From Vandiemenella viatica (taxonomy: Eukaryota; Arthropoda; Insecta; Orthoptera; Morabidae): a stretch of DNA of 64,000 nucleotides. The stretch is from the NCBI GenBank assembly GCA_031002005.1, contig CM061920.1:50694610-50758609 (forward strand), written 5' to 3'. The notes under the pieces were generated by a model. That model did no database searches. It was not told the DNA's origin and saw nothing but the letters and a program-made list of their open reading frames with translations. Both the position numbers and the translations under genes were made by a program. This document shows positions 279 to 35,379 of this stretch, piece after piece (position 1 is the stretch's first letter; the number at the start of each line of letters is the position of its first letter).

Positions 279-1700
279 CACTCCTGGAAATTGAAATAAG
301 AACACCGTGAATTCATTGTCCCAGGAATGGGAAACTTTATATACACATTCCTGGGGTCAGATACAACACATGATCACACAGACAGAACCATAGGCACATA
401 GACACAGGCAACAGAGCATGCACAATTTCGGCACTAGTACCGTGTATATCCTCCTTTCGCAGCAATGCAGGCTGCAATTCTCCCATGGAGACGATCGTAG
501 AGGTGCTGGATGTAGTCCTGTGGAACGGCATGCCAAGCCATTTCCACCTGGCGCCTCAGCTGGACCAGCATTCGTGCTGGACGTGCAGACCGAGTGAGAC
601 GACGTTTCATCCAGTCCCAAACATGCTTAATGGGGGACAGATCCGGAGATCTCGCTGGCCAGGGTAGTTGACTTACACCTTCTAGAGCACGTTGGGTGGC
701 ACGGGATACATGTGGACGTGCATTGTCCTGTTGGAACAGCATGTTCCCTTGCCGGTCTAGGAATGGTAGAACGATGGGTTCAATGACGGTTTGAATGTAC
801 CGTGCACTGTTCAGTGTCCCCTCGACGATCACCAGAGGTGTACGGCCAGTGTAGGAGATCGCTCCTCACACCATCATGCCGGGTGTTGGCCCTGTGTGCC
901 TCGGTCAATTGCAGTCCTGATTGTGGCGCTCACCTGCACGGCGCCAAACACGCATGAGACCATCATTGGCACCAAGGCAGAAGCGACTCTCATCACTGAA
1001 GACGACACGTCTCTATTCGTCCCTCCATACACGCCTGTCGCGACACCACTGGAGGCGTGCTGCACGATGTTGGGGCGTGAGCGGAAGACGACCTAACGGT
1101 GCGCGGGACCGTAGCCCAGCTTCATGGAGACGGTTGCGAATGGTCCTCTCTGATACTCCAGGAGCAACAGTGTCCCTAATTTGCCGGGAAGTGGCGGTGC
1201 GGTCCCCTACGGCACTGCGTAGTATGCGACGGTCTTGGCGTGCGTCCGTGCGTCGCTGCTGTCCGGACCCAGGTAGACGGGCACGTGCACCTTCCGCCGA
1301 CCACTGGCGACAACATCCATGTACTGTGGAGACCTCGCGCCCCACATGTTGAGCAATTCGGCGGTACGTCCACCCGGCCTCCCGCATGCCCAGTATACGC
1401 CCTCGCTCAGAGTCCGTCAACTGCACATACGGTTCACGTACACGCTGTCGCGACATGCTACCGGTGTTAAAGACTGAGATGGAGCTCCGTATGCCACGGC
1501 AAACTGGCTGACACTGACTGCGGCGGTGCCCAACCGCTGCGCAGCTAGCGCCCTTCGACGGCCAACACTGCTGTTCCTGGTGTGTCCGCTGTGCCGTGCA
1601 TTTGATCATTGCTTGTACAGCCCTCTCGTAGTGTCCGGAGCAAGTATGGTGGGTCTTACACACCGGCGTCAATGTGTTCTTATTTCAATTTCCAGGAGTG
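279..1700 (-). mobile_element. Tc1-like DNA transposon, full length but inactivated
   Basis: A complete Tc1-type element. Its ends are 27-bp perfect terminal inverted repeats (279-305 and 1674-1700, beginning CACTCCTGGAAATTG), and it is bordered by the TA duplication expected for this superfamily (277-278 and 1701-1702). The transposase gene lies on the minus strand in one continuous frame. Intact inverted repeats beside a coding region full of nonsense codons suggest an element that could only be moved by another copy's transposase, or one that died after insertion. I recall the same family as abundant in grasshopper genomes; this is recollection, not a search result. Confidence 0.93.
434..1456 (-). 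pseudogene. Tc1-like transposase pseudogene (three stops, catalytic E to K)
   Basis: Tc1-family transposases cut and paste DNA at TA sites. Read from the ATG at 1456, a single 341-codon frame runs to 434. The N-terminal half is a paired-like helix-turn-helix region (LTDSERGRILGMREAGWTYR, then RTIRNRLHEAGLRSR). The DDE core shows VVFSDES (first Asp), FQQDNARPH (second Asp) and SPDLSPIKHVWD. The third catalytic residue, normally Glu in SPIEHVW, is Lys here (codon 626-628). I count 32 residues between the second Asp and this position. In-frame stops lie at 1013-1015, 905-907 and 866-868. I see no frameshift. The three stops and the E-to-K change all look like C-to-T or G-to-A decay. Confidence 0.9.
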
Positions 1701-4576: not shown

Positions 4577-7500
4577 GTACACCAACAATACAAAGTAGTT
4601 AAACCATTAAAAATGCACCCGCAAATCTGTAAGATAATTACACTCCAAGAATCATAACTGATATCTGAATGTTATATCACCTTCTGCATTAGCGAATCCC
4701 ACTCCTTGGACTCGAGGCAAACCCATGTAGGTAAGCGCGTTGCAGACAGGCCAGAAATACCCAAACCCAGAATTTTGACTACATGACACACTCAACCAAA
4801 CTGTATGAATGTGAACCCGAAGACACTACTAAAATCAGTGAATTCTGCAATGAGAAAGAATTTATTGGTCCCTTAGCATCACATATAGTACAAAGTGAAA
4901 ATGATGTTGGAAGTCAAAATATGTGTACGCAGACAGACACACGCTCAAACATTATATCCAGTTTTACACTACATCTAACAGCAAGATACAAGTTTTAAAC
5001 AGACAAAAACATATTATAATTACAAATATATAAGAAAGTACAAATAAATAAATGTGTATATAATAAGTAATTTATTTATACAGTTTCTCATTATTTACAT
5101 TTATTATAGACACTATGATTTAAGACTAACATTTTTTTTGCAAATACTCATCAACACTATAGAAACAGTGGTAGAGCAAGTACTCCTTCAGTGCTGAAAT
5201 TAATTCAATATTTCCTCTTACTGACTTGACCTTTTGTGATAGATTACTAAACAAACTGATTCCCAAATGAAGTGGTCCTTTCTAAAAGAGGCCAATATTT
5301 GTTTGTAATTTATGTGAATCTAGTGTGTCATTTATTATGTGTGTGCACATCATTGTTTGTTTGTAGTGTGTATCCAAAAGCGTCCATAGTTTTTAGTATC
5401 TCAGATTCTCGAGACGTGGGGAGAAAAATTATAAACTCAAATATCAGATTGTTCGTTGAGAAGTTGAACGTTAAATCCGAAGTTTGGAACGTCGTAGCGT
5501 CTTCATACGGACAAAGCATAGCTTTTCCAGGGGTGAGGGTCAGTTTTAAGCACCGTAAAATTCCCGCCAGGGGCCGCGATATGCCCCAGTGATCTCGCGC
5601 GCCTTGACCAGCTGAAAGACTGATCCAAGCGGGTTACTAGCTGTGGAACTTTCGAACGAAGTCAAACATGTCAACCGACCTTCAGTTTCTACTCTTAATC
5701 CAGAAAGTTTCAGCTCCGATCAACCTGCTCGTAAAAACACTCTTGCGCGATCAAATTACTGTACGATGCTAGCTGGAAGTTTGACTTGCAGTTGAGCTCT
5801 CACATTTGTTGTGAAGTCAGTAGTTCTCTGCACGCAATCACGTGACAAGGAACAAAACAGGGGAAGAGGCGCATGTGACGTGTACCAGTGCAGTCAGGAG
5901 AACTTTTAAGATTTGTCATTTCCCACTCCACTACTCGACGAAAACGATTTTCTTGTGTCTGTTTTCCTTAAGTGTTATGAGTAAATCGTGTAACGTTTAC
6001 TTTTGGGGAAAGTAAATTCTGGATCATACTGTTTCATCAATAACAAAATTATCAAGTTTGAATATCAAAATAATAATTAATTTTCAGCTAACCACATGAA
6101 ATATAATTGGAATTATTAGGAGAACTGAAAAGTGGGTGTACAAGTTATTACAATTGATCATTATGAAATTATGCAAACATGAAGTTTGTTTTTCTGATAT
6201 AAACAATTACATATCATTGAATGTTTTAAAGTCAAACAGTTAGATCAATATCTCAGGGTAAATTTATTGGGTGGAACGATAGCATTAGTTCCCATCGTGA
6301 TCGTAGATTTTACCGTTGTTCACGGGCACGTCAGCACCCAGGCACGAACAGCGCCACATGGGATCGTCCAGCTTTCTAGTCCGCCGCAGCGTGGTGGCAG
6401 TGTCTCCAGGCCCCGGCTCGCCCAGTGCTCAGACCTCAGCGAAGGTCACTAGTGGCTGTATCAGATGAGGATCCCAACCAGAGTGTGTCTTCGTCCGTTT
6501 TTCAGCTCCAAGCAAGACTCTGTACATCTCGCAATGCGATGTCTCGTCCGGCTCTTGGCGAATTACAGCACTCCGCGCCAAAGTACCAGCAATTCATTGG
6601 CTCCCAGAACAAACAAGAAAAAGCACCAACACGTCAATAAATTTAGGCGGCTTCTCTATTGGCTGGATCGTCTCCCACCACTCTCAGAAAGTGTTTCTTT
6701 ACTTAGAAACGGCACTAAGGTACATTTTCGCTCGCCGGCACCAGTTTTCGGAGGGTCTTTTCCGAAACGTGCGAAAATAGATGGCCTTGGTTATTAATGG
6801 TGGCTATAAATACCCTTAATGTCCAAGTTGGGTAGAACGTTTTCAGTCCCCCACGGTGCGTGTAAATCTGGACGCTTTTGTTCCGTCATGTATCTGTTCG
6901 CTTGGCGTGCCGCACCGTCAACATTCACACATACCGTGGGAACACTTGGTGCCTAATAATACTGTACTTTTTTAATTCATTACAATCTCAAGCGCTGAAA
7001 ACTAAATATGCCTTTAATAAGTGCGATGGCTATAGTTGTAAGTTTATTTTTGTTTTTTTTTGTCTTCATGTCTTAAGCTCGGTGTTTGTTGACAGGTGTG
7101 CAAGCAGGACCACTCTGATGACGGGAAGCCGTCGTTCCGGCCTGAGCCAGGGGAGGACGAGCGGGAGTCCTGGGACAGCAAGCTGACCTTCCTGCTGGCC
7201 ACTGTGGGCTACGCGGTGGGGCTGGGCAACGTGTGGCGCTTCCCCTACCTCGCGCAGAAGAACGGAGGAGGTCAGCCCCACTCACCCGCCCACTGCTGTC
7301 TCTCGTGTTTCACGTTGTGCTGACGCATTTCCTCTTTTAGGTTCGACACCGTGCTCTACGGAGTAGGCAGAATACCAAAGCGACGCACATCGTTAGGTAC
7401 AATTTCATGAGCTGTCTAGTTCGAAATATTGCCACCGCTTCTTCTCCTAGAAAATAGAAGGTATTTTTCTCGCTCTACTGATAGCATTCAATCGCAGATC

Positions 7501-14900: not shown

Positions 14901-17900
14901 ACTCCAGGTGAATACCAGGATGCTGTCTTCAAACGTCCATGACCAAATTCCTTCCAGCTCCTTGACCCCAGTTCCATCCCGTCTCTAATGACCTCGTCGT
15001 CGACGAGGCGTAAAGCCATAAGCAAAAAAAAATTCTTTTACTTTTGGAATTATTAATCATATTAACAACAAGTTACTACTTCAACAAATAAAATAATAAA
15101 TTTCCCAAATCACTCCAGGCAAATGCCGAGATGCTTCCTTCAAAAAAGGCCATGGGCGAATTCCTTCCCATTCCTTGCCCCCCATCCTTTCCCGTCTCTA
15201 AATGACCTCGCTGTTATAGAGACGTTAATCAGATAAAAAAAAATATATAATAATAAATAATTTCGGAAGTCCCTAAGTTGAAAATCCTTTGTCAAAGTAT
15301 ACTTTCGACTGTACAGGCGCCTTCCTGATCCCGTACTTCGTGATGCTCGCCGTGGAAGGCATCCCCATCTTCTACCTGGAGCTGGCGATCGGCCAGAGGC
15401 TGCGCAAAGGCGCCATCGGCGTCTGGAGCCAGGTGTCCCCCAAACTGGCCGGCATCGGCATCAGCAGCGCAGTCGTCTCCTTCAACGTCGCGCTCTACTA
15501 CAACACCATCATCGCCTGGTGCCTCTTCTACTTCGCCCAGGTAAGCACGCGCTCTACTACAACACCATCATCACCTGGTGCCTCTTCTACTTCACCCAGG
15601 TAAGCAAGCGCACTACTACAACACCATCATCACCTGGTGCCTCTTCTACTTCGCCCAGGTAAGCACGCGCTCTACTACAACAACCATCATCACCTGGTGC
15701 CTCTTCTACTTCGCCCAGGTAAGCAAGCGCACTACTACAACAACCATCATCACCTGGTGCCTCTTCTACTTCACCCAGGTAAGCAAGCGCACTACTACAA
15801 CAACCATCATCACCTGGTGCCTCTTCTACTTCGCCCAGGTAAGCAAGCGCACTACTACAACAACCATCATCGCCTGGTGCCTCTCCTACTTCGCCCAGGT
15901 AAGCACGCGCTCTACTACAACAACCATCATCACCTGGTGCCTCTTCTACTTCACCCAGGTAAGCAAGCGCACTACTACAACAACCATCATCGCCTGGTGC
16001 CTCTCCTACTTCGCCCAGGTAAGCACGCGCTCTACTACAACAACCATCATCGCCTGGTGCCTCTCCTACTTCGCCCAGGTAAGCAAGCGCACTACTACAA
16101 CAACCATCATCACCTGGTGCCTCTTCTACTTCACCCAGGTAAGCAAGCGCACTACTACAACAACCATCATCACCTGGTGCCTCTTCTACTTCGCCCAGGT
16201 AAGCAAGCGCACTACTACAACAACCATCATCGCCTGGTGCCTCTCCTACTTCGCCCAGGTAAGCACGCGCTCTACTACAACAACCATCATCACCTGGTGC
16301 CTCTTCTACTTCACCCAGGTAAGCAAGCGCACTACTACAACAACCATCATCACCTGGTGCCTCTTCTACTTCGCCCAGGTAAGCAAGCGCACTACTACAA
16401 CAACCATCATCGCCTGGTGCCTCTTCTACTTCACCCAGGTAAGCAAGCGCACTACTACAACAACCATCATCGCCTGGTGCCTCTCCTACTTTGCCCAGGT
16501 AACCACGTGCTCTACTACAACAACCATCATCGCCTGGTGCCTCTTCTACTTCGCCCAGGTATGGTCGCGCTCTACTACAACACCATCATCGCCTGGTGCC
16601 TCTTCTACTTCGCCCAGGTATGGTCGCGCTCTACTACAACACCATCATCGCCTGGTGCCTCTTCTACTTCGCCCAGGTATGGTCGCGCTCTACTACAACA
16701 CCATCATCGCCTGGTGCCTCTTCTACTTCGCCCAGGTATGGTCGCGCTCTACTACAACACCATCATCGCCTGGTGCCTCTTCTACTTCGCGCAGGTATGG
16801 TTACTGTGTACTGTAATCTGCCCCAGTACTGTCGTTACTTCTCAAATGGTAATTAACCTGAATGTTGGATTAGTCCCTCCATCGGAGGCACATTAGGTTT
16901 GTATGCAGTGGTAATTCGTTTCTCGTGTGTGCATAAGTGGGGTTGAATGATGTAGATGACTGATGTCTGTTGCTTAGTATTGTATACTATTTGTGTTGTA
17001 TACCTGAAGAAGAAGGAAGGGATAGGGTGAAGCCCAGTGCCAGACCATCCATATGTAAGACCAGAAATTTTTCGTCTTATCAAGCTAGGATGGCAAGCCT
17101 TTGATAGGCATTCCATTATCCTCAAATCGATTATGCACACAAATCTACATCAAATAGTTTACAACCTGTGTAATATGACTATACTGACTTACGGCTGTGA
17201 GACCAGGACACAAACGAATTTGTGAAAGGAAAAAGTAGAACACAACTGTGAACAATGGAAGGGTCAATGTTAGGAGTAACTAGAAAAGACAAGAAGCGAG
17301 CAACCGACATTTGGTCAGTCACAAGGGTCACAACCATCTAGGAGAAGACAGCTTGAAGTGGCAGTGGGCCGGCCATATTGCTCGGATGAAAGACGAAAGA
17401 TGGACAAAAACAGTGTTGGAGTGCAGCCCAAGAGATCATCAGAGAACAATAGGAAGACCTATGGGACAAGGACATACGCAGGGTTGTTGGAGTTAACTAC
17501 AAAGGATCGCCCAAGATTGTTCGACCTGGAGAAGACTGATTAAGCTCTATTTGAACTCATAACTATAAGAGGCCACGTCATTTAATGATTGAACTGACTG
17601 ATGGTGATGATGATCAACTTATGTGAGCTATACAACAATAATTACTTCTATTTTGTTGGAGCTTAACAACTTGCAATATAGGATTATAAGAGGATTAAAG
17701 TATGTAAACAAGCTACTATGGGGCTAGGCGGTGCAGTGCACCGGGGTCCCTACGCTGAGGGGGCCCCCAAGCAGCATACCTCCGGGGGTCCCCAAGCGCA
17801 GTTCAGAGGGCTCACGGGCCTTCACGGCAAATTGGTGACCTTTTTTTTATCTCAACCGTCGTTTAATGGGGGCCCCTGAGACACAGGGAGCCCCCTCACT

Positions 17901-20900
17901 GGCTCACTAGTCAGGGGCCCCCAGCCTCAGCTCAGGGAGCCCCTACCAGCAACACAAAACAAAAAAAGGTCACCCATCTGGCCTGAGAGCCCAAAATCAT
18001 TTTTTTGCACCAGGGCCCTTGTTGACCTAGCTACGCCACTGTGTAAACTGTTTTGTAGAAAATGAGACAGCGTTTTAAAACGGAGAGTTTTTTTCATATA
18101 TTTTTCTTTTATTCTTTTACATCTCGATAACCACGGCTACTAATTTCGGACGGGACTTCCGTGAACTCCTATGAAGGAGTTGTTGTCAATCCAGATCACC
18201 ATCGCCGGAAAGAGCATGGAAGTCGCTGAAACGCCCGTTTAGCGTTGTGTCGCACGTATCGGATTTGTCTCTGCAAACAAAATGATTTATGGATTTGGAA
18301 AAAGAGTTAAACAACATAAATTTTCAGTATATTTATATGAAATAACTGAATCAGTCGCATTTATCTTGGAATATGGAGAAATTTCCAAACAAAATGATGA
18401 TTAAAAAAAAGCTTATATATCATCATACATGTCAATTTGTTAAATACTGTGTTAACCCCAAAACTTGAGTTTAAAATTGCAGAGCTTTGTGTTCCTCACT
18501 TGACTTAAATCTTCAAGAATGTTGCTGACATTTCTACCGTATATGCAATGAGCTGTACTTTACATGGTCGATAACAAACAACTCACATAATTATGTAAAT
18601 AACAGATTGTTGCGAACAATTTTTAAGGTACACAACTAGACAATTTTCCTGATTACTTCTTGTAAAACGAATAGAATCTTTCATGCGTGGGAAAATTGTT
18701 ACTTCCTGGACAAGAAGCGATAGAAGAAAGTGTGATATAGATGCCAGCAAGTTATTAAGGTCAATCGAAGTGACGGATTGTTCTATGAGTTACGATAACA
18801 TTTCACGACCAACACATGTTGTCTATTTAAACAGATAAAATGAAATTTTTATCATTCAATTACGTTACTCTATATAGTTAGTATTTACATTTCATCGACG
18901 ACGAGCTCATTAGAGTCAGGCGAGGGTTTCGGAGGAGGAACGGGAAGGAAATCGCAGATGGTCTTTCTTTATAAGGAACCATTATGGAAAAGCTGCAAAA
19001 CCGAATTCTGTTTGGTTTCATAATTGGCGGATTATTATCACGGCGGAAAATGACAAACGTTCACTGCATTGAACCAGTGCCAGGCTGTCGCCTCTGCTTA
19101 CGCCGGTCACAAGCGGAGGGCGCTTCTGTGCTTTATTCAGTCCGCCTCACAAGCAAAAGCAAGGTCTGCTATTTCCGAAGAGAGTCTGTCAGTATACAGC
19201 TACTACGTTGTGGAGAGTGACGGAAGTACACTTTACTTAAAAGGGGTGAGCGAACAATACTCAACAGTCAAATCGGAAGTTTGTAAACTAAAATTTTGTC
19301 AGACGAGAAAGAAAATATTTTCAGCATAGAGAGTATTAAGTGATCTTAAAACTTAATTACCATGTCCATAGCGCAGTCTCACTTAAATAATTGTTTGTTG
19401 TTTTGCAGAGTTTCCAGTCGGAGCTGCCCTGGGCCAACTGTCCTGTCAAGTACCTGGAGAACGGCTCCTACACGCCAGAGCCCGAGTGCGTAGTAAGTAC
19501 TCTATATCACGCAACACTTCAGCCAATTCATATTCTTCTCTGACGCTTCAAACAAATTATTTCAAGTACTGGGAACTACAAATGTTCTCCGTGGTTTTAA
19601 AATCTAGTATTCATCATACTAATACGCAATATTGGAAAACATATTTACAAAACACAGAGGAACAGAGGTAACAATGAATAGACTTGCTAAATGTACAGTC
19701 TCTCTGTTAAACTCAACAAGGGCACCAAATCTTATGGACATACAGCGACTTCAACTACATTACTGGCAAAAGTTGGAGCCGAGACATACAAACGCGCGTA
19801 AATTTCGACAGAAAAAAAAAAAAAACAAATCGAGTGGCATCAGACACGATGTGTTCAAGATAACGTTCCAAGTGTTCATCGATGAGTCACCAGAGGGGCA
19901 TGATTTAACTGAAAAATCAGATGTAGTGTGTTTTCTCTTACCCGCCTCATCACCCTAAAAATACCTTTTTGTTGCAGTGATTTCTGGAAGGGAACGGGAC
20001 TGTAAGGGATTTCTTCATACATTAGTATTTGTCAGCCATTTTCAATCAAGGCCTGTTAGAGTCGAAAGTACTAATCATCATGATTCTCTAAAGATGTAGG
20101 GCCTAAAGGTAGTCAGTTAAAATTAGTAGATTTTCTGTCGACTGCAGTAACCTTATGAGCTTCTATACATCTTTCATAGTGGTTTGCAAAGCAATCATTT
20201 AAACTTTCTGCAAGAAATACAATATTCAAATTATCAACAGTTGTTACAAATATTTTACATTTTACAGAGTTATGTCGGAAACTAAGCCTTCTTGGTAATA
20301 TATTTCTTTATTACTTCCTACCAATAAAATTTAGTAAGAAAAAACATAATAAAAAGAGTAAAATTTGGTTTTAAGAACACTTTGCGTTTTTAGGTGACTT
20401 GATTCCATTTCAAGGATGCGTGGTTGTGTTCATAGTTTAATAATTGTTCGTATCTATCAATGACGACGTTTGGACAAATTTCATATTTTAGTTCCACTTT
20501 TATAACTTCTCGCTTTGCAGTTATTATGGTAACGACAGATATCGTTTCTGACCAACATTTCAGCAGCTAAATATTCAGCATAATTCATCTCAGTGATTTT
20601 TTCTACAAACAAGCATATAAGATAAATGCATATTACTTGAAACCTTTAAAATGTTCTAAGAACCTCTTGCTGTACATTGAATGGAAGATGACATCATGTT
20701 ATGCAACAGGATTAACACGGGAGAGAGTACTGTGAACAGCTACAGGGGATGTTGACAAGATATTAAGTTGGGAGCTCAGCTTGGAATGAAGATAAATTCA
20801 AAACGAGCGAGTTTATTAGGCCCACTGATAGAAATTAAAGTAAAGGAGGAGTTTCTTGTTGAGGGTTTAAAATGTAAAAGTCATTAGTGCAGAGAATTCA

Positions 20901-23900
20901 AGATCCTGCATTTACTGGAGAGGGATGTTAGAGAATTGATGCGCAAAGCCTTGAATGGATCATTGCTTTACTACAATTGGATGATAAGGGGCCTCTCATA
21001 ATAGGTATCAAATACAGAAGTTTGAGGTGGTACAGTACAAAGAAGGAAAGCTAGATTTGTTTGTGAAAATGGCTTTAACGCCACAAACGGGTATGATGGA
21101 AAAAAACTCGATATGTAAGTTCTTTGATTCCAGTTCCACGTTAAATTGTAGGTACATCCACGATAGAGACAGAACGCGTGGTAAATCGAAAAATGTCGTT
21201 TGGTTTCCTTGCCAATATTGTCATAAGTACGGTTCGGATCTTTCTAAATCATATTTTATTCCTGCCTTCTTTCCGAATTGAAATGCTGAATTAAACACTG
21301 ATTAAACGTTTCTGAATGGATTTGAATTATTTTATATAGCACTAATTCATACTATTGTCCTTTTAGTCATATTACGATAACATTTATGGTCATATGGTGA
21401 CATTAAGAGGAAAAAACTGGTAATATTTCAATAGAACCGGGAATTCACTAGAAGTTATAGATGAGAAGAAATTAAGATAATTGTTCACAGAACTTTACTA
21501 CTATTACACATTGGAGTAAAAAACAAAACTAATTGTAACTGAATTGGCCAGAATTAAGGTAATACATTATTGTCACTCTCTATAATGTTCTGCCCGCCTT
21601 TTAATCTCGACAATGCAGCAGCAGCATGCCTGTGTCGATCCGCGTCAATCAATGTCTCATTGTCACCAATAATTTTGAAAATAATCCTGTCATCGTCAAA
21701 TCTGCATTGAATCAGTGAGTACCGCCACGCTGAAAACAAATTCTGAAACTGCGAAGTTAAGAGTTACGTAAAGGAATTTGGAGTGGAGTATTTTAGTGCA
21801 GACGAAAGAGTACTTTTATCTAAATTGTATGAAATTAAAGTGACTTCAACAAAACCATTTAAAATTTAATATCCCAATGGTGGAGTTAATGCGCGGAAGC
21901 AAATAATGCTGTCTACATGAAAGCGACACTACCAGATAAAATAAATTAAGAATAATTGAGCATATTTTGATGTAAAGTAAAATTAAATGTTTGGTCACAT
22001 TTTGTTATTTTTAGGTCACACATACCCGTCTTTAAGGTCATATTTGCATGCATATTCCTCTATTTTTTTGGTCATAAAGATCCGAATCCCAGTATAAGCA
22101 TTTATCTTTTACACTAGCGGATGATTACTGCCTGACAATGTGATTGTCCCCACAGAGGAGCACCCCCACGCAGTACTTCTGGTACCGGACGACTCTGATG
22201 GTGTCGGAGGACATCAACACACCAGAGGTGTTCAACTGGAAGATAGCGCTTGCCCTGGTCATCGCCTGGCTGCTCGTCTATATGTGCATGATCAAGGGCA
22301 TCGCCTCCTCGGGCAAGGTACAACACACATATTCTATAAGCGTTCATTGAAAAAAAAAAAAAAAAAACCTTCGTATTTATCCAGATCTCAAAACATATTT
22401 AAAATTTTAGTCAAGCAGATAACAAAGAATACTCACGTTAATGCTGAAGTTCCGGTGCTCGTTATTACTCTACCCTCTGCCCAATTTTTCCAAAATAGTC
22501 AGCACGAAAAATTATACAACTTATTTACACGTATTTTCTTAAGAGAAGGAGTAAACATTGTTATACTTAGTCCATGTTAGAAGCAAACAGAAGAATCGAA
22601 TAACTTGTCAGACCATGGGGCAAAGTGTCACGGCCCAGGCATTCCAATTCCCTTGCCTCCACGTAATCCACTTGTCAGCAGGCTGGTGAGCCGTTCTAAA
22701 CGTTTAATTCTAAAGATAAAATCATTTGAATTCCGGTAATCGACTTCTTAGTGAAAAAACACTACCAATTGGGAAATTTACCAAAGCATGTATGCATATG
22801 AGGTGACTGGAAGTTTCTCCATTTATGTAAAAGTAGTGCTACATTCCCTCCTGTCGTCCAGACAACGTTAATGGCCTCTACACCAAATTCAGATTGAAAG
22901 TATCAAAGCACGCTAATTAATGCTGAAGTTTTGAATTAATCTTCGCTGCTCTTAAAACATCTGGAGATAAAGTATCATAACAACAGCAGCTCCGTTTTAG
23001 AATTGTAGCTTCTTGCGGTATGAATAATCCTCTGCTCTTCAAGTTCCCGTTGTACTGGCGATGAAAACTCACCTGTAGTTTACGTAACTTTAATATGGAG
23101 AGACGTAACTATGTTTATTTCTTGAAAATATAAAACAGTTCTTGGTGTTCTATTACGAATTTGCTCAAATAACTCTCATTCTTGTTTCGGAACCACAATG
23201 ATCTGAAACTTAACTTACAGCTGTGAATACCAATTAGTACTAAATGTTCCGAAAACATGACCAAGAATTGTCAAAACATTTGATGCAAAAATATAAATTA
23301 AATTTGGCTTAGGTTAGATACACTAAAAGAATAAGCCTTTGTCCTAATTGGAATGCAACCTTGTTTAGTATTTTTTTTATGGCTTTACCTCTTGACATCG
23401 ATTTCATTAGAGGCGGGAAAGAGCGGGAAGGCATTCGGCCATAGGGCCTTTTTAAAGGAACCTTGCCGGCATTTGGTGAAACCCTGAATGGCCGGATCAG
23501 GATTCGATCGCGCATCCTCCCGAATGCGAGGCCAGAGCTCTTGTTCACTAATGACTCCGCCTGCGAGGATGTGCATGGTATTCATTCATCGCTTCCGCCT
23601 TATAATGCTTATGTCTCAGATACTGTAGATAAATAACAATTTTTAATAGATTTTTAATGCCAAAATTTCCTTCGTAAAACGTTGGTACATGTAGCATGTA
23701 CGATTTGTTGGTAACTGTAAGGCCGGGCGCACATTGACGCGCAGTCGGCGCAGCGCAGCACAGTTTCTGTGTCTCTATGTTTTGGGGCGGAACAGCGCGT
23801 ATTGAGACGCAGAGCAGGGCAGCGCAGTACTGCGCCGCACGTGGCCTGCGCCACGTTGTGATTACGACACAGAAACTGTGCCACGCAGCTCACTCGTGCC

Positions 23901-24176
23901 GGTTTTTGCCGTAACACTTCTTGCGTTATTTATAATCTTGCTTTACTTATAATCATTTTCAACTATGGAATAAAAAAAATTGATTAATCTGGTGCGTAAC
24001 CAACCTGCGATTCACAATATCAGTTATAAAAAACACATAAAAATTAAATTTAAACAAGAGATTTGGACAATGAGCCCAAAAAGTGGCGAGTAAATTCAGC
24101 ATTTATTTATCATACAACTATCCATTTACAATTTTCTTTTCTTTTTTTGAATTCATTTTTAATAAAACTTCGAAAA

Positions 24177-24232
<56 letters not shown>

Positions 24233-27200
24233 TATTATCACATTATTTGTTTTCTTATTATTTGTACTACATCATTCAATAGTGTCCCCGAGAAACACTT
24301 AATTTGTTGACACTGCTTTTTTAATTTCAAGTGTTTATGTTCTGTTATATAGTTTTCTTAAAAATATAATATGAAATAAAAAGGGAAACATTCTTATAAA
24401 TGTGATGTACCGTCAAACGCTAAATAATTAAATAACCACGAAAATGCAGCGAGATTTTCTTCAGTTCTAATAGATATTTGAGTTTTGTCGAGAAAATAAC
24501 AGGTTACATTATGCCGTGAATCTCCGCTCGAGTGAGCCGGAAATTATCTTTTGAAAATTCTCTTGTCACTGCAAAAGCCAGATGAGAGTTTCTTCTTTTC
24601 ATATACTCACTTTTGCATAGTTTTATCTAACTCAGCTTCTGTTAAAGTAATAACAATTTTCCAAGCTCGGCATCCCAATCTGATTCAGAAATCAAAAATC
24701 GAGTTTTTGCATCGACATGTTTTTGGTTACGCTTTATTGTCGGTTTTTCGCACAACACAATGCTTTGTAAAATGCCGCACGAAACTGCGCTCTAATATGA
24801 GCGAGTAACTGCCAGTCTGTGCTGCCCTGCCCTGCTCTGCGTTGCCACTACTGCGCCACGCAGCTCAATGTGCGCCCCGGGTAAATGTTTCAAGCTAAAT
24901 TTGGAACATTCCTGGTATTTTAAATGTCCATAACCAATGTTCACGTCGTCAGCACCAGGTCCAAGCCAGTACGTTCAGCCTCAGCTTCATAGAGATTTCA
25001 AACACAGCGAGTGAGGCACGAGTTACGACAATCGGCTTCAAGTCTGACATCAGTTTTTGATAATACTGAGAGAGAGAAATATGCCAGTGTATTTACCAAC
25101 AAATCCTACGAACGGTAAAACTGGGCTTGTATGAACTAACACGTGATCTGTAATTTTGTTAGACAACATGCAATCTTATGTGGGTTCTTATTGTTTTGCA
25201 GGTCGTTTATGTGACGGCAACTTTCCCATACATAGTGCTCATTATATTTTTCTTCCGCGGAGTGACCTTAAAAGGGATGTCGGATGGCCTCAGACACTTG
25301 TTCACTCCCAAGGTAAGTGACGGTACTTTGTGCAAATAACAACAAACTTACAATATAGATCAACACATAGAAAAAGAAATGGACATCCTTTTGAGATTTT
25401 TACTTCTGTCTTGTCTTTGAAAATTATAAATTCTTTAGCCATAAATACATTTTACTCTTCGAAGCGAGTGTATCTAGCAGATTTGATATCATTGTGTTAT
25501 TGATATAAATTAGCATGAAATAAGAATAAATTGTTAAAACATATATTTCATTCAATGTACAGAATAACACTATGGGCAACTGACCAATAAATGATTTTGA
25601 AACCATTACACCTGCAGGTTATGTATTAAAGCTAAATTACTAGGGCCATAATATCTTTAAGATTGTTACACTGTCTCATACTTCACTTTATTTCAACAGG
25701 CTTATCGGGTAGTCAAATACACAATCCAAGTGATAATAAACGGACACTAAACGTTACTTCATAATCTCTGAAAGTTGATAAAAGTAGCTACCTAATTAGA
25801 TGTTTAATACAGAAGTTCTCTCTAACAAATGGCGGGGTAACGAAAATATTTCTTTATTGAAGATCGGCAAGTACGCCGCCATCTTGTAAATGGGACAGGA
25901 GATAAGACTAGACATTTTCGATTGCATCAAGCTGGGTTGGGAAACTTACGGGAAGCTTTCTACTGCCCCCAGATCAATATGTCTTCAAAATCTGAAGAAA
26001 ATAGTTTAAGAGGCAGGAAAGTACTGGAGGCCAGGGATGGGAAGGAATTCAGCTGTGGCCTTTCAAAGTAACCATCCCGTACGGGGATTCGGACCCGCAT
26101 CCTCCCGAAAGCAAGAGCAGAGCATTAACGCTCATCTACGACACTCGGGAAAGAGCATTGAATTCTTTCCGTGCAGCCATATGGTTGCGAGACATTGAGT
26201 CAATTTACGAGAAATTTCACGGGAAAGGAAAAGAAAAAAGCAACCGACATCTCGGAGAAACAGCCACCTTGAAACGGCAGTAATGTTTCCCGAAGAAAAG
26301 ATAGCCAAAAATAGAATTGTGTTGGGGTGGAATCCAAGAGATCGTCAAAGACTAAGAGGATGGGAAAAGGCTGGAGATAGCTGGCAATTACACGATTGAA
26401 TTGGCTGATAGGGGTTAATTCAGTCGTAGGTAGAGCTAATTCATAGGTCAAATCTTGAAAAATTTTAATGCCCAAACAAAGGAGGAAGCGTACAAAACTC
26501 TCGCGCGTCCACGTTTGGACTACAGGTGCGCCGTTTCCTAGGGGCGTGTTTGACAGTATAGAGAAAGTACAGAGAACAGCCGCTCGACTTGTGACTGCTT
26601 GCTACAGTCTTTATGACAGAGACACAGAATTGATTCGTAGATTGGGCCGGGGTACTCTGATAGGCAAAATATGTAGATTTCGTTTGAACTTATTGGTAAA
26701 CAAGCGGACACACATTTTCATTTCCGAATGCGATGAAATACTTTATTCACCAACCTATTTGTGCCGCAATGACAGGAATGATAAGATTAGAGAAATAAGA
26801 TGCCGCACTGATGCTTAGGCCTATATGAATTCTTTCTTTCCTTGTGCTTTTCGGGGTTGGAATGCACGGAGTAGAGCACCCTCTGCCACCCACAAATTGG
26901 TGAATTTCAGAGTACATATGTGGATGTAGAATATAAACTGCTTCCAATGAAAATTTTTTGTGTGCTATGAAGCTAATTATCGTTAGAAGAAACTTTAATA
27001 CAATTATATAATATTTAAGCTAGCGGAATATAATAACGTAATAATTACTTCTCGTTAATATTACCATAGACTGGCGAAACGCAATTATTAAAATTACCAA
27101 CAGCTTTTTAAATTATACATAGTATGAGCGAAAATGTCGAGTGTACTCCCGTTACGTACAGGATATGAAGAAAGCACAAAAGGGGCAGCATTTATCCTAA

Positions 27201-28620
27201 CTGGTTGTTTCAAGATATCAGGGTTGACACGGGACAGGTGTTATGGTGGAGGGAAACGTGTGCCATAGAAAATTAAATAGTATTGAAAATTGTGTTCACG
27301 TTTAGAAATTTGTGATGGTTTGTGTTTCAGTGGTGGACTCTGCTGGACCCCGTGGTATGGCTGGAGGCGGGCACTCAGATCTTCTTCTCTCTGGGGTTGG
27401 CTTTTGGGGGCCTCATAGCCTTCTCCTCGTACAACCCGGTAAATAACAACTGCTCTCGGGACGCAATCATGGTCTCGCTTACCAACTGTTTTACTTCCAT
27501 GTTTGCTGGAATTGTGGTCTTCTCTATTATTGGTGAGGGACAAATCATATACACAATATTTACATCTATAATGTTTACTTATGTCTAACTGATATAGTTC
27601 TATTTCAGCAATTTCAAAACTATAGGAGTCAGTAATAAAATGAATATCATTGATACCAGAATCGTGGTTGGTTTCAGCGAGTCAGACAGATATGTGTGTG
27701 GCTAAGTTTTCCAAATTCTGACGCCGTTTATCAAACGATGAATATAACGTAATGCTTAGTATTTCTTTGGTGCATTTTCTGCTTCATGACAGAAATTACT
27801 ATCGAGAAAGTTCTTTATTTCTGATACATGGAGTACAGTGATATTTAACCTTCGAGAAGAAACTTACGTCGTTTAAAAAAAAAAGAAAGGGTTGTTAGCT
27901 TTATCATCTGTTAAAATTGCTCTTAGGGAGGCTAATATATGAGATATTAATATTACCGATCATGTTACCAGTAAGAATAAAATTAGAAAAAGTTCTTTTA
28001 CATAATTTTAAAACATACATTTGTAGTAGCCTACAATTTTCTTTTTTTTCTATCATCACTATCTACACTAGTTTGATGTAATCATCCATACCTTTCTATC
28101 TTGAACTAACCTCTTCATCCTAACATACCCCTTACAACATACATCATCAATTATCTGCATCATATATTGTAATCTTTGTCTTCCACTACAGTTCTTTCCT
28201 GCGACTGTTCCCTCCACTAACAAATTAACCAATTCTGCATCTCTCAAAATGTGACCTACCATTCCGTATCTTCTTTCTGTGAGACTCTACCATAAGCTTG
28301 TTTACTCACCAACCATTTCCAAAACACGTTCATTTCGTACTTTATCTGTCCATTTAAATTTCAGCATTCTTCTGTAGCATCACATTTCAAATGCTTCAGT
28401 TTTCCTTTTTGCTGGTATTCCTAAGATCCAAGCTTCGCTACCATAAAGTGCTGTGCTCCACACATGTAGTTTAAAAAGTTCTTTCTGAGTCATAAATCAA
28501 TATTTGAAACTAAAAGATTTCTCTTTTTCATGACTACTTTTTTCGTTAGTGCCATTCTGATCCTAATCACTTCAGGCTAAAGCCAGGATGCTTCCTTCAA
28601 AAGGCCATGGCTGCGTTTCC

Positions 28621-28678
<58 letters not shown>

Positions 28679-31600
28679 AGCAAACTACTCTGCTTTTAGC
28701 ATCATTCCTGCTTTGGCTGTAATTTTAGCACCTAAGCATCATTATTCATTTACTTCTTCTATCTCATCCGATCCTATTTTTATATTTAATCCACTATTTC
28801 TGTTATAATTTCTACTTCATTTCATCACTTTTGTCTTGCTTTGATTTAGTCCAAAATCTTCCTTCAGTATTTTATTCATAACATTCAGTAACTTCTTAAT
28901 ATCCTCAATCTCTTAAAAAGACAGTGTCAACAGCAAATCGTTGCATACTGATTCTTTTCTTGATGAGCATTTGTGTCACATTTAAATTTTTCTTTTATTT
29001 CCTTTATTGATTCCTCTATATACAAATTGAATAGTAACCTTGTCTCACGTCCTTTTTAACTGATGCATATCTCTCACGATTCTCTACTATTATTATAGCC
29101 ACTTGATTCTTATGTTGTTTATAAAGTACCTTCTTAAACCATTTTCAAGTATAAAAGCTTTACTTAATCCAATCAGTTAATTTTATTTGTCATGTGAGTA
29201 ATTTAGAAATTTTGTTACTCCTATATAGTTCCACATAGGCCTACATATGATCAAAATAGTGCTAAAATAATAAATTCGCGGTTAGTTACAGGAAATGTTA
29301 ATTTTTAATTAATTTAATTACAATGAATCATATACCAGATGTGACTTTCTGTACTCACGTATTCCGCATGCACGAATTTTAAATTTAAATCCCCTCCGTG
29401 CAGTTTCTCTGCACACCTTCTTTAGCCTTTTATGAATTATTATTAGAAATTATCACAAATTTTCTCTTTAATAGATATAACAAAACAAAATTTGCAGTCT
29501 AAATTTTGATTACATGGAAAACCAGCATGACAAATCGAATCTTCTTTAATTGCATGTTGTAATAAATTTGGTTAGAAAAGATGTGGGTTGTTATAGAAAC
29601 AATTATTATGTGTAAGCACTGGAAATATTTAAATATTAGATACATATTTTGAAGGTAACAAACCGCAAACTGCAGGAATAAAAAACAAAATGAAATAGAC
29701 CACTGTGACAGCAATAATGTTCTGTACATGCTTTATGAGTATTTTGCTGTCTATAAGTCATAATATTCATTCCAGAATCCAATGTTTAGACAAAAATCAT
29801 TAACAGAATTAGCTAATACTTGCAAATTTTCAGGTTATCAAATCATAAAAATTAGAACAACAATAAATATTCATTAATGATAACGTTGTTATCTATAATT
29901 AGTTATATAATTTACAATTTTATTTGTGATGGAGTGCATGCTATGGTGTGGACTTTACCTACAATCATATTTTCGATTTTGTCTTGTCTGGATCTAGTGT
30001 TTAATGGAATCCGAGCCATAGACTATGTGTAAAGAGCAATAGATTAACATTTTGCACGATATTACCAAAATTTAAATGATACATGTAGTAAAATTTTAAA
30101 TATGGCCAATACATTTCACGTAAACATCCTGTATTATTTTATTGTGCAATATGCAGTGTCTTAGGTCCGTTCCATTCCATTCGCTCGTTTTTTGTCGCTA
30201 TGTAATTTTATTCTGTCCTTCTAGCCTCTCAGTACCGAAATTAATTTGACGAAATTTTGTTGTTTAATTTCTTTCCAGATTTGCATGTAATTTTTCTGAA
30301 TAATCGCTTTTCTGTAATTAAATGATTTGTTTCATCTATGACTACCGTATTTTGGAATGTGTATATCTCATGACTTCTCACTAATGTGGTTTTATTTGCT
30401 GTGTTTACTAGTTAATAAATTTTGTGATTTGTATGTATTTTTGACTCTTTAGTTATTTCCCCCGATATTTATTTAATTGTCTAACAATTGAGCGCATCTG
30501 GAAACATAAAGGGTGTTGTCAGTATTCACTTTTATATCCGAAATCAATTTTTTGCAAATATGGTCGAACTGATAGAACAGCGTTATTAGATCAGCAGTGT
30601 GCTTTGCGCGTTGACTTACCTGATAGTGTGTTCCTACAGGATTCAAGGCGACCATGATCTATGAGCGGTGTCTGGAGGAGAGAGACGCAATGATATCCGC
30701 GGCGCCCAACGACACGACGCCCGCTGGCCTGCCCGAGTGCGACCTCGAGAAGGAACTGGACAACGTGAGTCTCACATCTGCTAGAGATCAGAATTAAACC
30801 CATGAGCTAATCACAGAAATAACGAACTTTACTGCTGATTATTAATTCTGAAAGTCAATGTTTGTTAACATAGTCTCAATTTTTCAGATTTTCACCATAT
30901 TTCTGGAAGTAGTTCCAAAATACACTTATTGTGTTAGGCGTCAAGAGAAAATTAAACTCATTTAAAAGCGGAAATAAAAATAACTAAGAAAAAGCGATTC
31001 CGATATTTTCATATGATTTATACGAGCTTTTCAATATGTCAATATTTATAGTATCGATGGACAAAACATTCACTGAATTTTTCTCATGCAAAGCATCGTA
31101 AGAACAATTATATTGAGCAATTTAGTGTGTACATCTTTTCTTTATATATATATATAAAACAGATTCAAAACATATATTATAAAATTACCAAGGTTTACGC
31201 ATTCTTAATTGTGATTCAATTTAAAAAAATTTCTGTAAATCGTAACGAACACCTACAAGTTCTGTAATAAAATAGGATATCGCCTACAAGTAAACACACA
31301 AAACACAATTGTCAGCTACATTGCCTTTGACGTGTCGTTTACGGTGTTACGAATCATAAAATATTCTCCTCCTGGGATCCTGTTCAGATGCGTTTAAAAT
31401 TCTATGAAGTCCTCATAAACAACCCATTTTTAAACAATAAGAAAAAAATCATTTTATTAGTCAGGTAGTTAAAAAGTTGTGTTTGCATTTTTTACAGACG
31501 TAAATAAAATAATATAAACTTTGGTGTTCTCCTGTAGATTTATCGTTATCTGTTCGCTTGACAAATCGATCTGTTTGTACGCTCTATAATCAACACTGCT

Positions 31601-34600
31601 AACTAAATATATTCTATTAAATAAATTGGTAGTTGCAAGTAATCTATTTATAATTACTTTTCGATATATCGAATAAAATACATTGATACATATGGCTGTT
31701 TTAGAGTTCAAAGGTATACCGAATCAGTTTGCTGCATCGTATTATAAATATCGATTTTCCTTATGCATCGATGTATGTCAAATACTCTACCTCACTCTAT
31801 ATTACACATCATAGTTTTCTGATAACGTTGGATATAACAAAACATCAATCTTGTTGATGTTTTCTTCTTTTTGTGTGGGTCCTGATTCTTCATTCATACA
31901 ATTTACTGTGTATGTTATGAGAGCTGCAAAATTTATTTTCCTTGGTGTTACAGTCGGCATCCGGGACCGGTCTGGCGTTCATTATCTTCACAGAAGCCAT
32001 CAACCAGTTCCCGGGAGCGCAGTTCTGGTCTATTCTCTTCTTCCTGATGCTCTTTACGTTGGGTATCGACTCCCAGTTCGGGACGCTCGAAGGAGTCGTC
32101 ACCTCCATCGTCGACATGAAGCTGTTCCCCAACCTGCGCAAGGAGATCCTGACAGGTACATAAAACCCCCGTCCCGAGCACACAACAGTGACTCCAGTCT
32201 CCACGTCTCTTCAGCCGACCGCTCTTATCGTTGCAGGAGTCATCTGTCTTGTGTGCTGCGTCATCTCCATGGCTTTCGCTCACGGTGCTGGAAGCTACAT
32301 CTTCATTCTGTTTGACAACTTCAGTGGGAACTTCCCTTTGTTAATTATCGCATTCTTCGAATGCATCGGCGTGTCTTACGTGTACGGGCTAAAAAGGTAA
32401 GACGAATAAGAATGTTTTATATCTATAGTATATATATCCCATGTAAAATTGTAAGGAACTTAAACCATCTAAAACTCAAGCAGAAAGATTGATTTATTCT
32501 TTTCAAACGTTGATACGTTTCTTCAACTTTTTTTATTTTGTGAAAACATGTTACAATCCCTCATAAAGTACGACTTGCAATAATTGAATAATTATCCTTG
32601 CGTTAAACAAAAATAAGGCTTATGAAATAAAGCATAACAAGGTAATTCCTTTTGTTAATCCTTTAACTTTTTAATATTTATTAGTCTACTCATTTATCTT
32701 TTATTCATCTTATTTTATTTATGGCGTTCTGATTTATACAGTATAATGATGATTGTTTTCTTAGTTTTTTTCTGTCAATTGGTGAAGGTTATGTATTATT
32801 TTTTGTATTCTAGTCCCCTGTTTAACATGGCCAAACAACTTAGTTCCACATTTCAAAGTCTCTATTCAGTCGTGGCTGGCTCGAGCGTCTATACTTGTGA
32901 ATGAACTCTAGGTGGAAGTTTACTGAGTTTCGAGATTTTCATAAACTGCTTCTAATCCTCTTGCAATCTTGATCTTGGTCTCTTGCATCTGGTGGGCCAT
33001 CAATATGATCATACTAAATACGTCAGGAACTTGGTACCACCCCATTGTAACATTGGAGAACTTAGAGTAAGGAAGTCTAATACTTGTGAAATTACTAGCT
33101 GAATTCTACCCTTTACATGAATTAATGATGGCTAAGTAATGAATAACCTGTTTATTGTGACACTTGATTGCACATATTACAGACGTAGGACATCCCCTAT
33201 AGTGTCTATGAAATGATAGGTTATTGGATCATGACTGAGTGATTAATAATGTCGTACCCTGTTCACTGCTTACCGGTGCTCAAGGCCATGTTCCCCTAGC
33301 CTCTCTCCTCTCTGCACAGCCACTTCCCTTCCTACCTCTCCGAGCTGACAGCTGTGTGCAGGTAGACGAGAGGAAATTTCCCCTGCGCATGTAGGAGTGA
33401 GGAGAGCAAATTGACCTTGGGCTGCCTCTGTTAATGAATAGGCAATAACTGTCTGATAGAGTGGCAGATGCTACTGACGGTATCCTGATGCAAGGCCCTG
33501 GCTGAAGTTTTTCTGATGGTGGCTTGATTCTAAACTATGCTACAAGAATCGGTCCTAACTGTTAGCTACCTCATAATGACTGTTCGAGAACTTTCAGCTG
33601 AATGAGACAGAATACTACCGTATACGCTGCGACCTGTCGCCACCTCGGTTCACGTCATTGATGATGATTCAATCCAGTATAAGTGATTCTGGTACCAACA
33701 ACTCGTGCTGAGTCGTCACTGGCGACAGCCCAGACCTCGTACCAAATTGAACTGAATAAAATCAAAATCTAACATTTGCTTAAATATTATACTTGTCCTT
33801 AATAGAAACCTAGAGCCTGAAATGATCCTTGACATTTCTGCTGTAAGGTACATCTTCAGTTCTTAAATTTTCATTTGTAACTTGGTTTTTCCTGTCTTTT
33901 TCACAGCCGAAGTGTCAAATGCAACATAAATTACCGAAAAATCTGATTAACCTAGAATCCAAAAGGGGAAATCATTTTAACAAACCAAACATCGGCAAAT
34001 GTAGACCTGTAGGGTCCGCAGACAGACATATTATTTTATTTATCCATTATATGTGTACTAAATAGTTCATTCTGTGGACCTTATAAGAAAGCATTAACTT
34101 GCTTTTACTTTTCAACATTTTCCAATTATCATACCCTACTACTAATTAATCATGGTACAATTTTGTGTAAACAACCACAACAATTTCAAGAATTATCATC
34201 ACTACGTAATAGCTCATGAGAATTGAATTTCCATACAGGAATGATTTAATAATCGGTAGGGGCATATACTTCCGATGCTCAAAACCCACTCCACCGACAT
34301 CAGCTACTCCGCTAGGTGATTCATAAAACATTCTTAGTCATCCGGAATATTTAATTGTATGCAGAGAACTAATTAACGATGCTTATTAATTTATTTTCTC
34401 AGTATGATGTACCGCAAGATAGGAAGGTATGGAGGATTGCATCAAGACAGCAAAACAATGATATATTTCTGTCCCAGAACCTCCAGTGAGCTATGTACTG
34501 TTTCATTCGGTCATCCTCTGCTACGTAGTCAAGTAGCAGTGATGGATCCAGGGGGGGGGGGAGGGTCTAGAGGACTCAAGCCTCCCCCTCCAAAAGTATT

Positions 34601-35335
34601 TAGGTCCACCACCGACATCATATTTTTTTTTAGATTTGGAGACTTTTTTTAGCTCAATTGATCTTTTAAAGGCTGCATGACTATAAAGGCTACACTTACC
34701 CGACTCAAGCGCTCCCCAAAATCCCCCCCCCACCAAACGAAATCCGCCCAAGCCCCCCCCCCCCACCCACCAAATGAAATCCGCTCAAGCCTCCCCACAA
34801 ACCAAAATCCGCTCAAGCCTCCCCACAAACCAAAATCCGCTCAAGCCCCTCCCCCCCCACCCAAAAAAACCAAAATCCTGGATCCACCACTGTCCAGTAT
34901 TGTATGGTCAAGTGTTCCTATAGACCCCAAAGATACAGTTATCATTCACTCACTGCCACCTTAATCGACTGCAGGTAGATTTCATACAATTGGAGGAAGA
35001 TAAGATAACATCATAATCCTCAGAACAGAAATAATTCATCCATATCTTCTTATCCTAAGGAAGAATAGCGTATACCGATCACCTGTTTCTGAAGTGTTCC
35101 AATGTTAATGGTATGCATACAGAACATGATTTCAAAAAAATATATTTTTTTTAATCCTGATGTAGCAGTTGCTCTCAATACATAGGAGGAAAGATCGCAT
35201 GTTTTAGCTAATGACGCCCAAAACTATCATTACACTTCGCACAAACTTGTTATGCCTCTCAACAATGTAGTCTGCCTATTAGCTTTCACCACAGTAACGC
35301 CTAACACATACACAGCCGTCACTGTAGGAACATTG

Positions 35336-35379
<44 letters not shown>

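What the first reader, a model, noticed from the sequence alone, without database searches (positions are those of the whole stretch)
15490..16794. Tandem amplification of an exon end together with its 5' splice site
The last 51 nt of a conserved transporter exon (TM3) plus the donor are repeated 21 times head to tail inside the next intron. Coding-derived minisatellites exist, but one whose unit is an exon/intron junction, giving 22 near-identical CAG|GT sites in 1.3 kb, is unusual. The gene must choose donor 1, because using donor 2 reads into TAA at 15601-15603.
Basis: seen in the sequence. Interest (0 to 1): 0.85.

Follow-up and report, generated by a model that had tools for sequence, protein, structure and literature searches.

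The report
Splice-site minisatellite in an insect transporter
In what looks like an insect amino-acid transporter gene, the end of one exon together with its splice signal has been copied 21 more times in a row inside the next intron, giving a natural case of 22 competing splice sites that is unusual in form but belongs to an already known kind of repeat.

Summary
A 59-60 bp unit (exon end plus donor) runs head to tail over 15490-16797, giving 22 CAG|GT sites, in intron 3 of an apparently intact SLC6 (B0AT/XTRP3-type) transporter: ten exons joined at donor 1 stay open and match Pfam SNF 1-520 of 524. No second copy was found in the 3.72 Gb genome. 63 of 120 listed relatives appear to share the intron; none showed a second copy. 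Flanks fit a tandem duplication with GT microhomology; GTATGG donors (D18-D22) look older, GTAAGC donors (D1-D16) derived and stronger. Donor 2 shifts the frame; donors 3-22 read that TAA. Each unit also ends in a pyrimidine-rich tract plus AG, so AG|GT might act as acceptor and donor, and nested splicing would restore the exact junction; acceptor quality depends on the background model. Closest known: the human 6-16/IFI6 splice-donor minisatellite, AGGT tandem-duplication introns, recursive splice sites. No RNA data were available; splicing is inferred.

The parts
7096..7270 (+). SLC6 gene, first exon located here (called exon 2; no exon 1 was found), to TM1; acceptor placement ambiguous by 12 nt
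   Evidence: Pfam SNF profile 1-38; splice sites read from sequence
15317..15540 (+). Exon 3 (224 nt, GAFLIPYF...CLFYFAQ), ends phase 0 at CAG|GTA; its last 54 nt are the source of the repeat
   Evidence: Pfam SNF 37-110; PDB B0AT1 and XTRP3
15490..16797 (+). Minisatellite: exon 3 end plus 21 further copies of exon end + 5' splice site, 59-60 bp units
   Evidence: TRF, unit table
15541..15546 (+). Donor 1 (CAG|GTAAGC), the only one of 22 that keeps the frame into exon 4 without a stop
15600..16444 (+). Donors 2-16, all CAG|GTAAGC (8 of 9 positions complementary to U1), first bases 15600 to 16439
16499..16504 (+). Donor 17, CAG|GTAACC (7 of 9)
16559..16800 (+). Donors 18-22, CAG|GTATGG (7 of 9), the inferred ancestral type; donor 22 at 16795 runs into the unrepeated intron (GTATGGTTACTG)
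15719..15958 (+). Four-unit block identical to 16079-16318 (higher-order repeat)
   Evidence: unit comparison
16079..16318 (+). Second copy of the four-unit block
   Evidence: unit comparison
15541..19408 (+). Intron 3 (3868 nt) holding the array in its first third
19409..19492 (+). Exon 4 (SFQSELPWANCP...), acceptor TTTTGCAG
   Evidence: motif search
22156..37078 (+). Exons 5-11 of the same gene (22156-22317, 25202-25312, 27331-27532, 30640-30764, 31954-32155, 32237-32396, 36758-about 37078; end of exon 11 not determined)
   Evidence: Pfam SNF hits; joined frame open

Best explanation
This is an intronic minisatellite born from an exon end. A short segment that crossed the exon 3/intron 3 boundary (54 nt of exon plus GTATG) was tandemly duplicated at a 2-nt GT microhomology and then amplified by further unequal exchange or slippage to 21 extra copies. 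The productive mRNA joins donor 1 to exon 4, and the array leaves with intron 3. The gene tolerates 21 decoy donors for two reasons (both inferred): exon definition favours the exon's own donor, and the unit is splice-neutral, since each copy ends in a pyrimidine-rich tract plus AG|GT, so splicing between any two copies only shortens the array and a wrong first choice can be undone by a second splice back to the same AG. Shown from sequence: anatomy, duplication junction, reading frames. Inferred: donor use, exon definition, rescue.
For: Array and donors. The distal flank GTATGGTTACTG matches the start of the distal units (GTATGGTCGCG), and the exon flank AACGTCGCG shares GT with it. The gene looks intact when donor 1 is used: 10 exons joined, 0 stops in frame; 572 aa of it match SNF 1-520 of 524, E 1.1e-184, best solved relatives XTRP3/SIT1 and B0AT1. 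Donors 2-22 shift the frame or read TAA. Copies carry changes that would replace exon residues (Ala to Thr, Phe to Ser), so they do not look coding. The intron position looks old: 63 of 120 listed relatives read Val (GTN) at the same point, and none of the 63 shows a second copy, 36 of them with enough read-through to do so. Nested removal restores the exact junction for 21 of 21 donors by sequence.
Against: No RNA evidence of any kind was available. Donor strength does not single out donor 1: D1-D16 are identical in -3..+6. Predicted RNA structure does not either: every donor, the real one included, sits in a hairpin. In the literature seen, SRSF1 favours the intron-proximal of two donors and hnRNP A1 the intron-distal one (PMC5585400, passages); the first would point away from D1, the second towards it. 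The unit's acceptor features are mixed: no yUnAy branch motif at a usable distance (two of the gene's ten real acceptors, exons 3 and 10, also lack a well-placed one), T content 0.375 against 0.31-0.69, and an acceptor score that is exceptional or only good according to the background used.
Confidence: 0.62

Rival explanations
1. Ratchet array: the copies are used as recursive splice sites. Splicing runs in 59-60 nt steps or multiples (donor i to AG j), each step regenerating a donor, and all routes end in the same mRNA.
For: Each junction juxtaposes an acceptor-like tract (pyrimidine fraction 0.76-0.82 against 0.53-0.71 in the gene's 10 acceptors) and a donor. By a recalled matrix with AT-rich background all 22 array AGs score above all 10 real acceptors, and 0 of 175 other AGGT sites on the + strand (and 0.7% of 3557 AG) reach the score of the first copy. 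Of the gene's 9 exon ends only exon 3's both ends in AG and scores in the acceptor range. A donor lies 59-60 nt further on, like the short recursive-splicing exons of about 50 nt in Drosophila (PMC8605326, passages).
Against: With a uniform background the score beats only 7 of 10 real acceptors, and 11 of 175 (+) and 11 of 182 (-) AGGT sites and 562 of 7350 AG sites reach it. No yUnAy at a usable distance, low T. Recursive sites in flies are said to be restricted to very long introns (PMC6110457, passages); this intron is 3.9 kb. A 59-60 nt intron is near the lower size limit (recalled).
Confidence: 0.17
2. Regulatory decoy array: 21 unproductive donors divert a share of transcripts to nonsense-mediated decay (or hold U1), so copy number tunes transporter output.
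For: Donors 2-16 equal donor 1 in U1 complementarity. Donors 3-22 give a stop after 20 residues and donor 2 a frameshift. In human 6-16/IFI6 two downstream repeat units are said to serve as donors (PMC4526556, passages).
Against: No expression or population data; no second copy seen in the listed relatives; copies turn over like an unconstrained minisatellite with a duplicated four-unit block.
Confidence: 0.12
3. Assembly artefact: the copies were created or multiplied during assembly or polishing.
For: Copy number rests on one assembly; no reads or second haplotype were available, and the sequencing method is unknown.
Against: 13 distinct unit types in an ordered pattern, a distinct distal type and a clean microhomology junction. 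The contig is 389 Mb, as expected of a long-read assembly, which would span 1.3 kb.
Confidence: 0.05

Closest known systems
Splice-donor minisatellite of the human interferon-induced gene 6-16 (IFI6/G1P3), Turri, Cuin and Porter 1995 (paper not held; title seen as a reference-list entry; use of two downstream repeat units as donors stated in PMC4526556, passage)
   Same: A minisatellite at an exon/intron boundary supplies multiple splice donors, so the same exon can end at several repeat units.
   Different: There the unit is short (12 bp, recalled) and downstream units are said to be used in mRNA. Here the unit is 59-60 bp and includes 54 nt of conserved coding exon, downstream use would break the protein, and use is untested. 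Not a human gene.
Intron gain by tandem duplication of an AGGT segment (Rogers model; reviewed in PMC3443670, passages; potato RdRp case PMC4974935, abstract and introduction)
   Same: Tandem copies of a segment holding AG|GT make each unit a GT...AG stretch that could be removed without changing the protein. The potato duplication also crosses an exon/intron boundary.
   Different: No new intron position arises: the intron seems to have been there already. The boundary is the donor side (potato: acceptor side), and the segment was amplified to 22.
Fission-yeast introns made of 24-nt tandem repeats (SPOG_01682, SOCG_00815; PMC3629103, passages)
   Same: Head-to-tail units with a proto-splice site; an intron composed of tandem repeats.
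   Different: 24-nt units with AGGC, few copies (up to four per PMC4974935), counted as newly gained introns.
Recursive splice sites or ratchet points of Drosophila (PMC6110457 and PMC8605326, passages)
   Same: Juxtaposed acceptor and donor around AG|GT, with a further donor about 50-60 nt downstream.
   Different: Repeated 22 times from a coding exon, in a 3.9 kb intron, weak branch signal, no RNA evidence.

Membership tests
Splice-donor minisatellite (6-16/IFI6 kind) | Tandem repeat at an exon/intron boundary, each unit carrying a donor | tested here: met
   22 of 22 CAG|GTA donors at unit boundaries
Splice-donor minisatellite (6-16/IFI6 kind) | More than one unit used as donor in mRNA | not testable with these tools
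   No RNA data
Splice-donor minisatellite (6-16/IFI6 kind) | Copy-number polymorphism | not testable with these tools
   One assembly only; no second contig with the array found
AGGT tandem-duplication intron gain | Duplicated segment contains AGGT | tested here: met
   22 of 22 copies
AGGT tandem-duplication intron gain | A new intron position absent from relatives | tested here: not met
   63 of 120 listed relatives read GTN at this point, as expected of an intron there; inferred from translated open frames, not from spliced transcripts
AGGT tandem-duplication intron gain | Transcripts spliced between copies | not testable with these tools
   No RNA data; the product would look like a shorter array
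Recursive splice site (ratchet point) | Strong juxtaposed 3' and 5' splice motifs at AG|GT | tested here: inconclusive
   D1-D16 strong, D17-D22 weaker; acceptor score depends on background used; branch motif weak
Recursive splice site (ratchet point) | Lies in a very long intron | tested here: not met
   Intron 3 is 3868 nt
Recursive splice site (ratchet point) | Downstream donor defining a short cryptic exon | tested here: met
   Next donor 59 or 60 nt downstream for donors 1-21; donor 22 has none in the array
SLC6 (SNF, PF00209) transporter gene | Full-length SNF domain in an open spliced frame | tested here: met
   SNF 1-520 of 524, 615.5 bits, in a conceptual join of ten exons whose borders I chose from sequence

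The most novel reading that the evidence does not exclude
A natural ratchet array: 22 AG|GT sites in a row let the spliceosome remove intron 3 by any of a very large number of nested 60-nt-multiple routes that all give the same mRNA, so the repeat is self-erasing at the RNA level and copy number can drift without harm. Such splicing would be nearly invisible in short-read RNA data because its product is simply an array with fewer copies.
Probability: 0.15. Interest if true: 0.8.

Novelty: new variant of a known kind. Interest (0 to 1): 0.45.

Why it matters
Donor choice between duplicated identical 5' splice sites has been studied mainly in built constructs (recalled). Here nature has built a graded series: 16 identical strong donors followed by 6 weaker ones, about 60 nt apart, next to a conserved coding exon. 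It allows a direct test of whether distance to the exon, donor strength or acceptor-like context decides, and of whether exon-derived tandem repeats are tolerated in introns because they are splice-neutral.

Tried and rejected
Stop-codon reason for donor 1: rejected as stated, since the TAA lies in donor 2's own intron side. Donor strength as the selector: rejected, D1-D16 identical. RNA structure hiding the decoys: rejected as a selector. Each donor forms a hairpin of -7.6 to -10.9 kcal/mol, (A/G)CCUGG with CCAGGU (one base different in the last copy), the true donor included, and modelled accessibility of D1 is within the range of D2-D17. D18-D22 are less accessible than D1 in all three settings, but only at 120 nt do they stand apart from D2-D17; at 70 and 200 nt they overlap with some of those. 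CTACTAC as a branch site: dropped; the unit has no yUnAy motif at a usable distance, only TCAT/TCAC 26-29 nt upstream. Array as a coding protein repeat: rejected. The 423-codon frame through it is what stop-free 60-nt units give, and none of the 7993 candidates scored reached E 0.001. A copy elsewhere in the genome: none found (that tool skips very common words and gives lower bounds). Paralogous SLC6 exons: in the 17 other loci TRF lists only short arrays of 50 bp or less, none an exon-end array (not every exon end in those loci was located; the seven minus-strand loci were printed on the wrong strand and redone). No Rfam family at gathering score in 14000-19600 and no tRNA found in the window. 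A genome-wide search for other CAGGTAAG arrays did not complete (14 attempts), so whether this genome holds more such arrays is unknown.

Full report
What is there. The array at 15490-16797 is real: period 60, 21.9 copies, 95% matches, score 2161, against 142 for the next repeat in the window. It carries 22 CAG|GTA sites with first intron bases from 15541 to 16795; of the 21 added units 15 are 60 nt and 6 are 59 nt. 13 of 60 columns vary and 13 unit types exist among 21. AG|GT is intact in all 22.

The gene. Pfam SNF hits on the + strand run from about 7.1 kb to 37.1 kb; exon 4 was found by a motif search. The stretch 10.0-16.8 kb was not scanned with Pfam apart from exon 3, but the profile runs on from position 38 to 37 across it. 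Exon borders were chosen by me from the sequence and the family alignment, the exon numbers are mine, no exon 1 was located and the end of exon 11 is open. Joining these ten exons with donor 1 gives one open frame (0 stops; 25 and 8 in the other two frames). 572 aa of it cover SNF 1-520 of 524 at 615.5 bits, with XTRP3/SIT1 and B0AT1 as best solved relatives. So the gene looks functional, and donor 1 is the coding-compatible donor. The window lies in a 3.72 Gb assembly. That the host is an insect is my inference from genome size, the transporter type and repeats; no name was given.

Consequences of each donor. Donor 2 keeps 59 extra nt, a frameshift with no stop inside the insert or in exon 4. 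Donors 3-22 keep 118-1254 nt and meet TAA after 20 residues, including donors 19 and 22 whose insert length is a multiple of three.

Origin. The sequence after the last copy, GTATGGTTACTG, is the unrepeated intron, and the last four units start GTATGGTCGCG. The exon reads AACGTCGCG at the matching place. The junction GTATG-GT-CGCG is what a tandem duplication with a shared GT gives, the unit being 54 exon nt plus GTATG. Three of the four distal units (those before donors 19, 20 and 21) are identical to the exon over these 54 nt and the last differs by one base. I infer that the GTATGG type is the older one and the GTAAGC type that now covers donors 1-16 is derived, with changes at +4, +6 and +7 that raise U1 complementarity from 7 to 8 of 9 and the duplex from -8.0 to -11.0 kcal/mol. 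A 1-nt insertion marks units 4-18 (unit n being the one that ends at donor n), and a four-unit block is duplicated (15719-15958 equals 16079-16318), signs of ordinary minisatellite turnover. The copies carry changes that would alter exon residues, so they do not look constrained for coding. The genome search found 21 matches, all inside this one array.

Relatives. Of 120 listed homologues (230 found, best 120 listed), 63 read Val (GTN) exactly where exon 3 ends here, 38 read Ser as in genes without an intron at this point, 1 has Ala, 1 Cys, 1 ends before, and 16 lack the motif. These are translated open frames, so an intron at that point is inferred. Of the 63, 36 have at least 18 residues of read-through, and none shows a second copy by the motifs searched, which suit this unit's sequence and could miss a diverged one. 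The intron therefore looks old and the array new in this lineage. In 17 other SLC6-like loci of the same genome TRF lists only arrays of 50 bp or less and none at an exon end that I could see.

How splicing could cope. Donor strength does not single out donor 1. Predicted RNA folding does not either: each donor pairs with an upstream (A/G)CCUGG, the true donor too. Two inferred aids remain. First, exon definition pairs the exon 3 acceptor with the nearest donor (recalled principle). Second, the unit is splice-neutral: the end of exon 3 (TGCCTCTTCTACTTCGCCCAG) also looks like an acceptor, so every boundary is AG|GT with a pyrimidine-rich tract. By a recalled matrix and AT-rich background the copies score 5.2-5.7 against 0.1-4.6 for the gene's ten acceptors, and 0 of 175 other AGGT sites on the + strand reach the score of the first copy. 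With a uniform background the first copy scores 3.24, three of ten real acceptors score higher, and 11 of 175 plus 11 of 182 AGGT sites reach it. T content is 0.375 (real acceptors 0.31-0.69). No yUnAy branch motif lies at a usable distance, though exons 3 and 10 lack a well-placed one too. So acceptor activity is possible, not demonstrated. If it occurs, any splice from donor i to AG j leaves a shorter array, and a transcript first joined at donor k can be corrected by donor 1 to AG k; by sequence this restores the exact exon 3-4 junction for 21 of 21 donors.

What is known. Human 6-16/IFI6 has a minisatellite that provides multiple splice donors (Turri 1995; paper not held; title in reference lists), and PMC4526556 states that two downstream repeat units serve as donors (passage). 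Tandem duplication of AGGT segments is an accepted route of intron gain (PMC3443670, passages; PMC4974935, abstract and introduction), with fission-yeast introns that consist of tandem repeats (PMC3629103, passages). Drosophila recursive sites are AG|GT with flanking motifs (PMC6110457 and PMC8605326, passages). In the listings of searches I saw no array built from a coding exon end with this many donors; most subscription papers are not held, so this is weak evidence of absence.

Verdict. A true and rather extreme case of a known kind: a splice-donor minisatellite whose unit is a coding exon end. Its value is as a natural test of donor choice and of splice-neutral repeats, which needs full-length RNA.

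Noticed in passing
15514-15542 and the same place in each copy: The end of exon 3 can fold into a hairpin, (A/G)CCUGG with CCAG|GU, that pairs the donor; it is present in the true exon and in the copies (one base different in the last copy).
   Followed up: partly
434-1684 (-): Broken Tc1/mariner-like transposase (HTH_Tnp_Tc3_2 and DDE_3 in two separate frames).
   Followed up: partly
37333-40392 (-): Non-LTR retrotransposon remnant with reverse transcriptase and endonuclease in two adjoining open frames, just after the last transporter exon found.
   Followed up: partly
41887-44371 (+): Second, different retrotransposon remnant with reverse transcriptase split over several frames.
   Followed up: partly
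14840-15245 (+): Two similar segments with A-rich tails sharing 'ccaaatcactccagg' just upstream of exon 3, SINE-like by eye.
   Followed up: no
17725-18040: G+C-rich stretch with repeated runs of G and C inside intron 3, seen by eye.
   Followed up: no
34723-34847: C-rich tandem repeat of about 28-37 bp units.
   Followed up: no
L009, L013, L015, L025 (contigs C7, C7729, C8, C4537): Four contigs have almost the same length, 388,957,591 to 388,957,675 bases, as if very long chromosomes had been cut into equal pieces on deposit.
   Followed up: no
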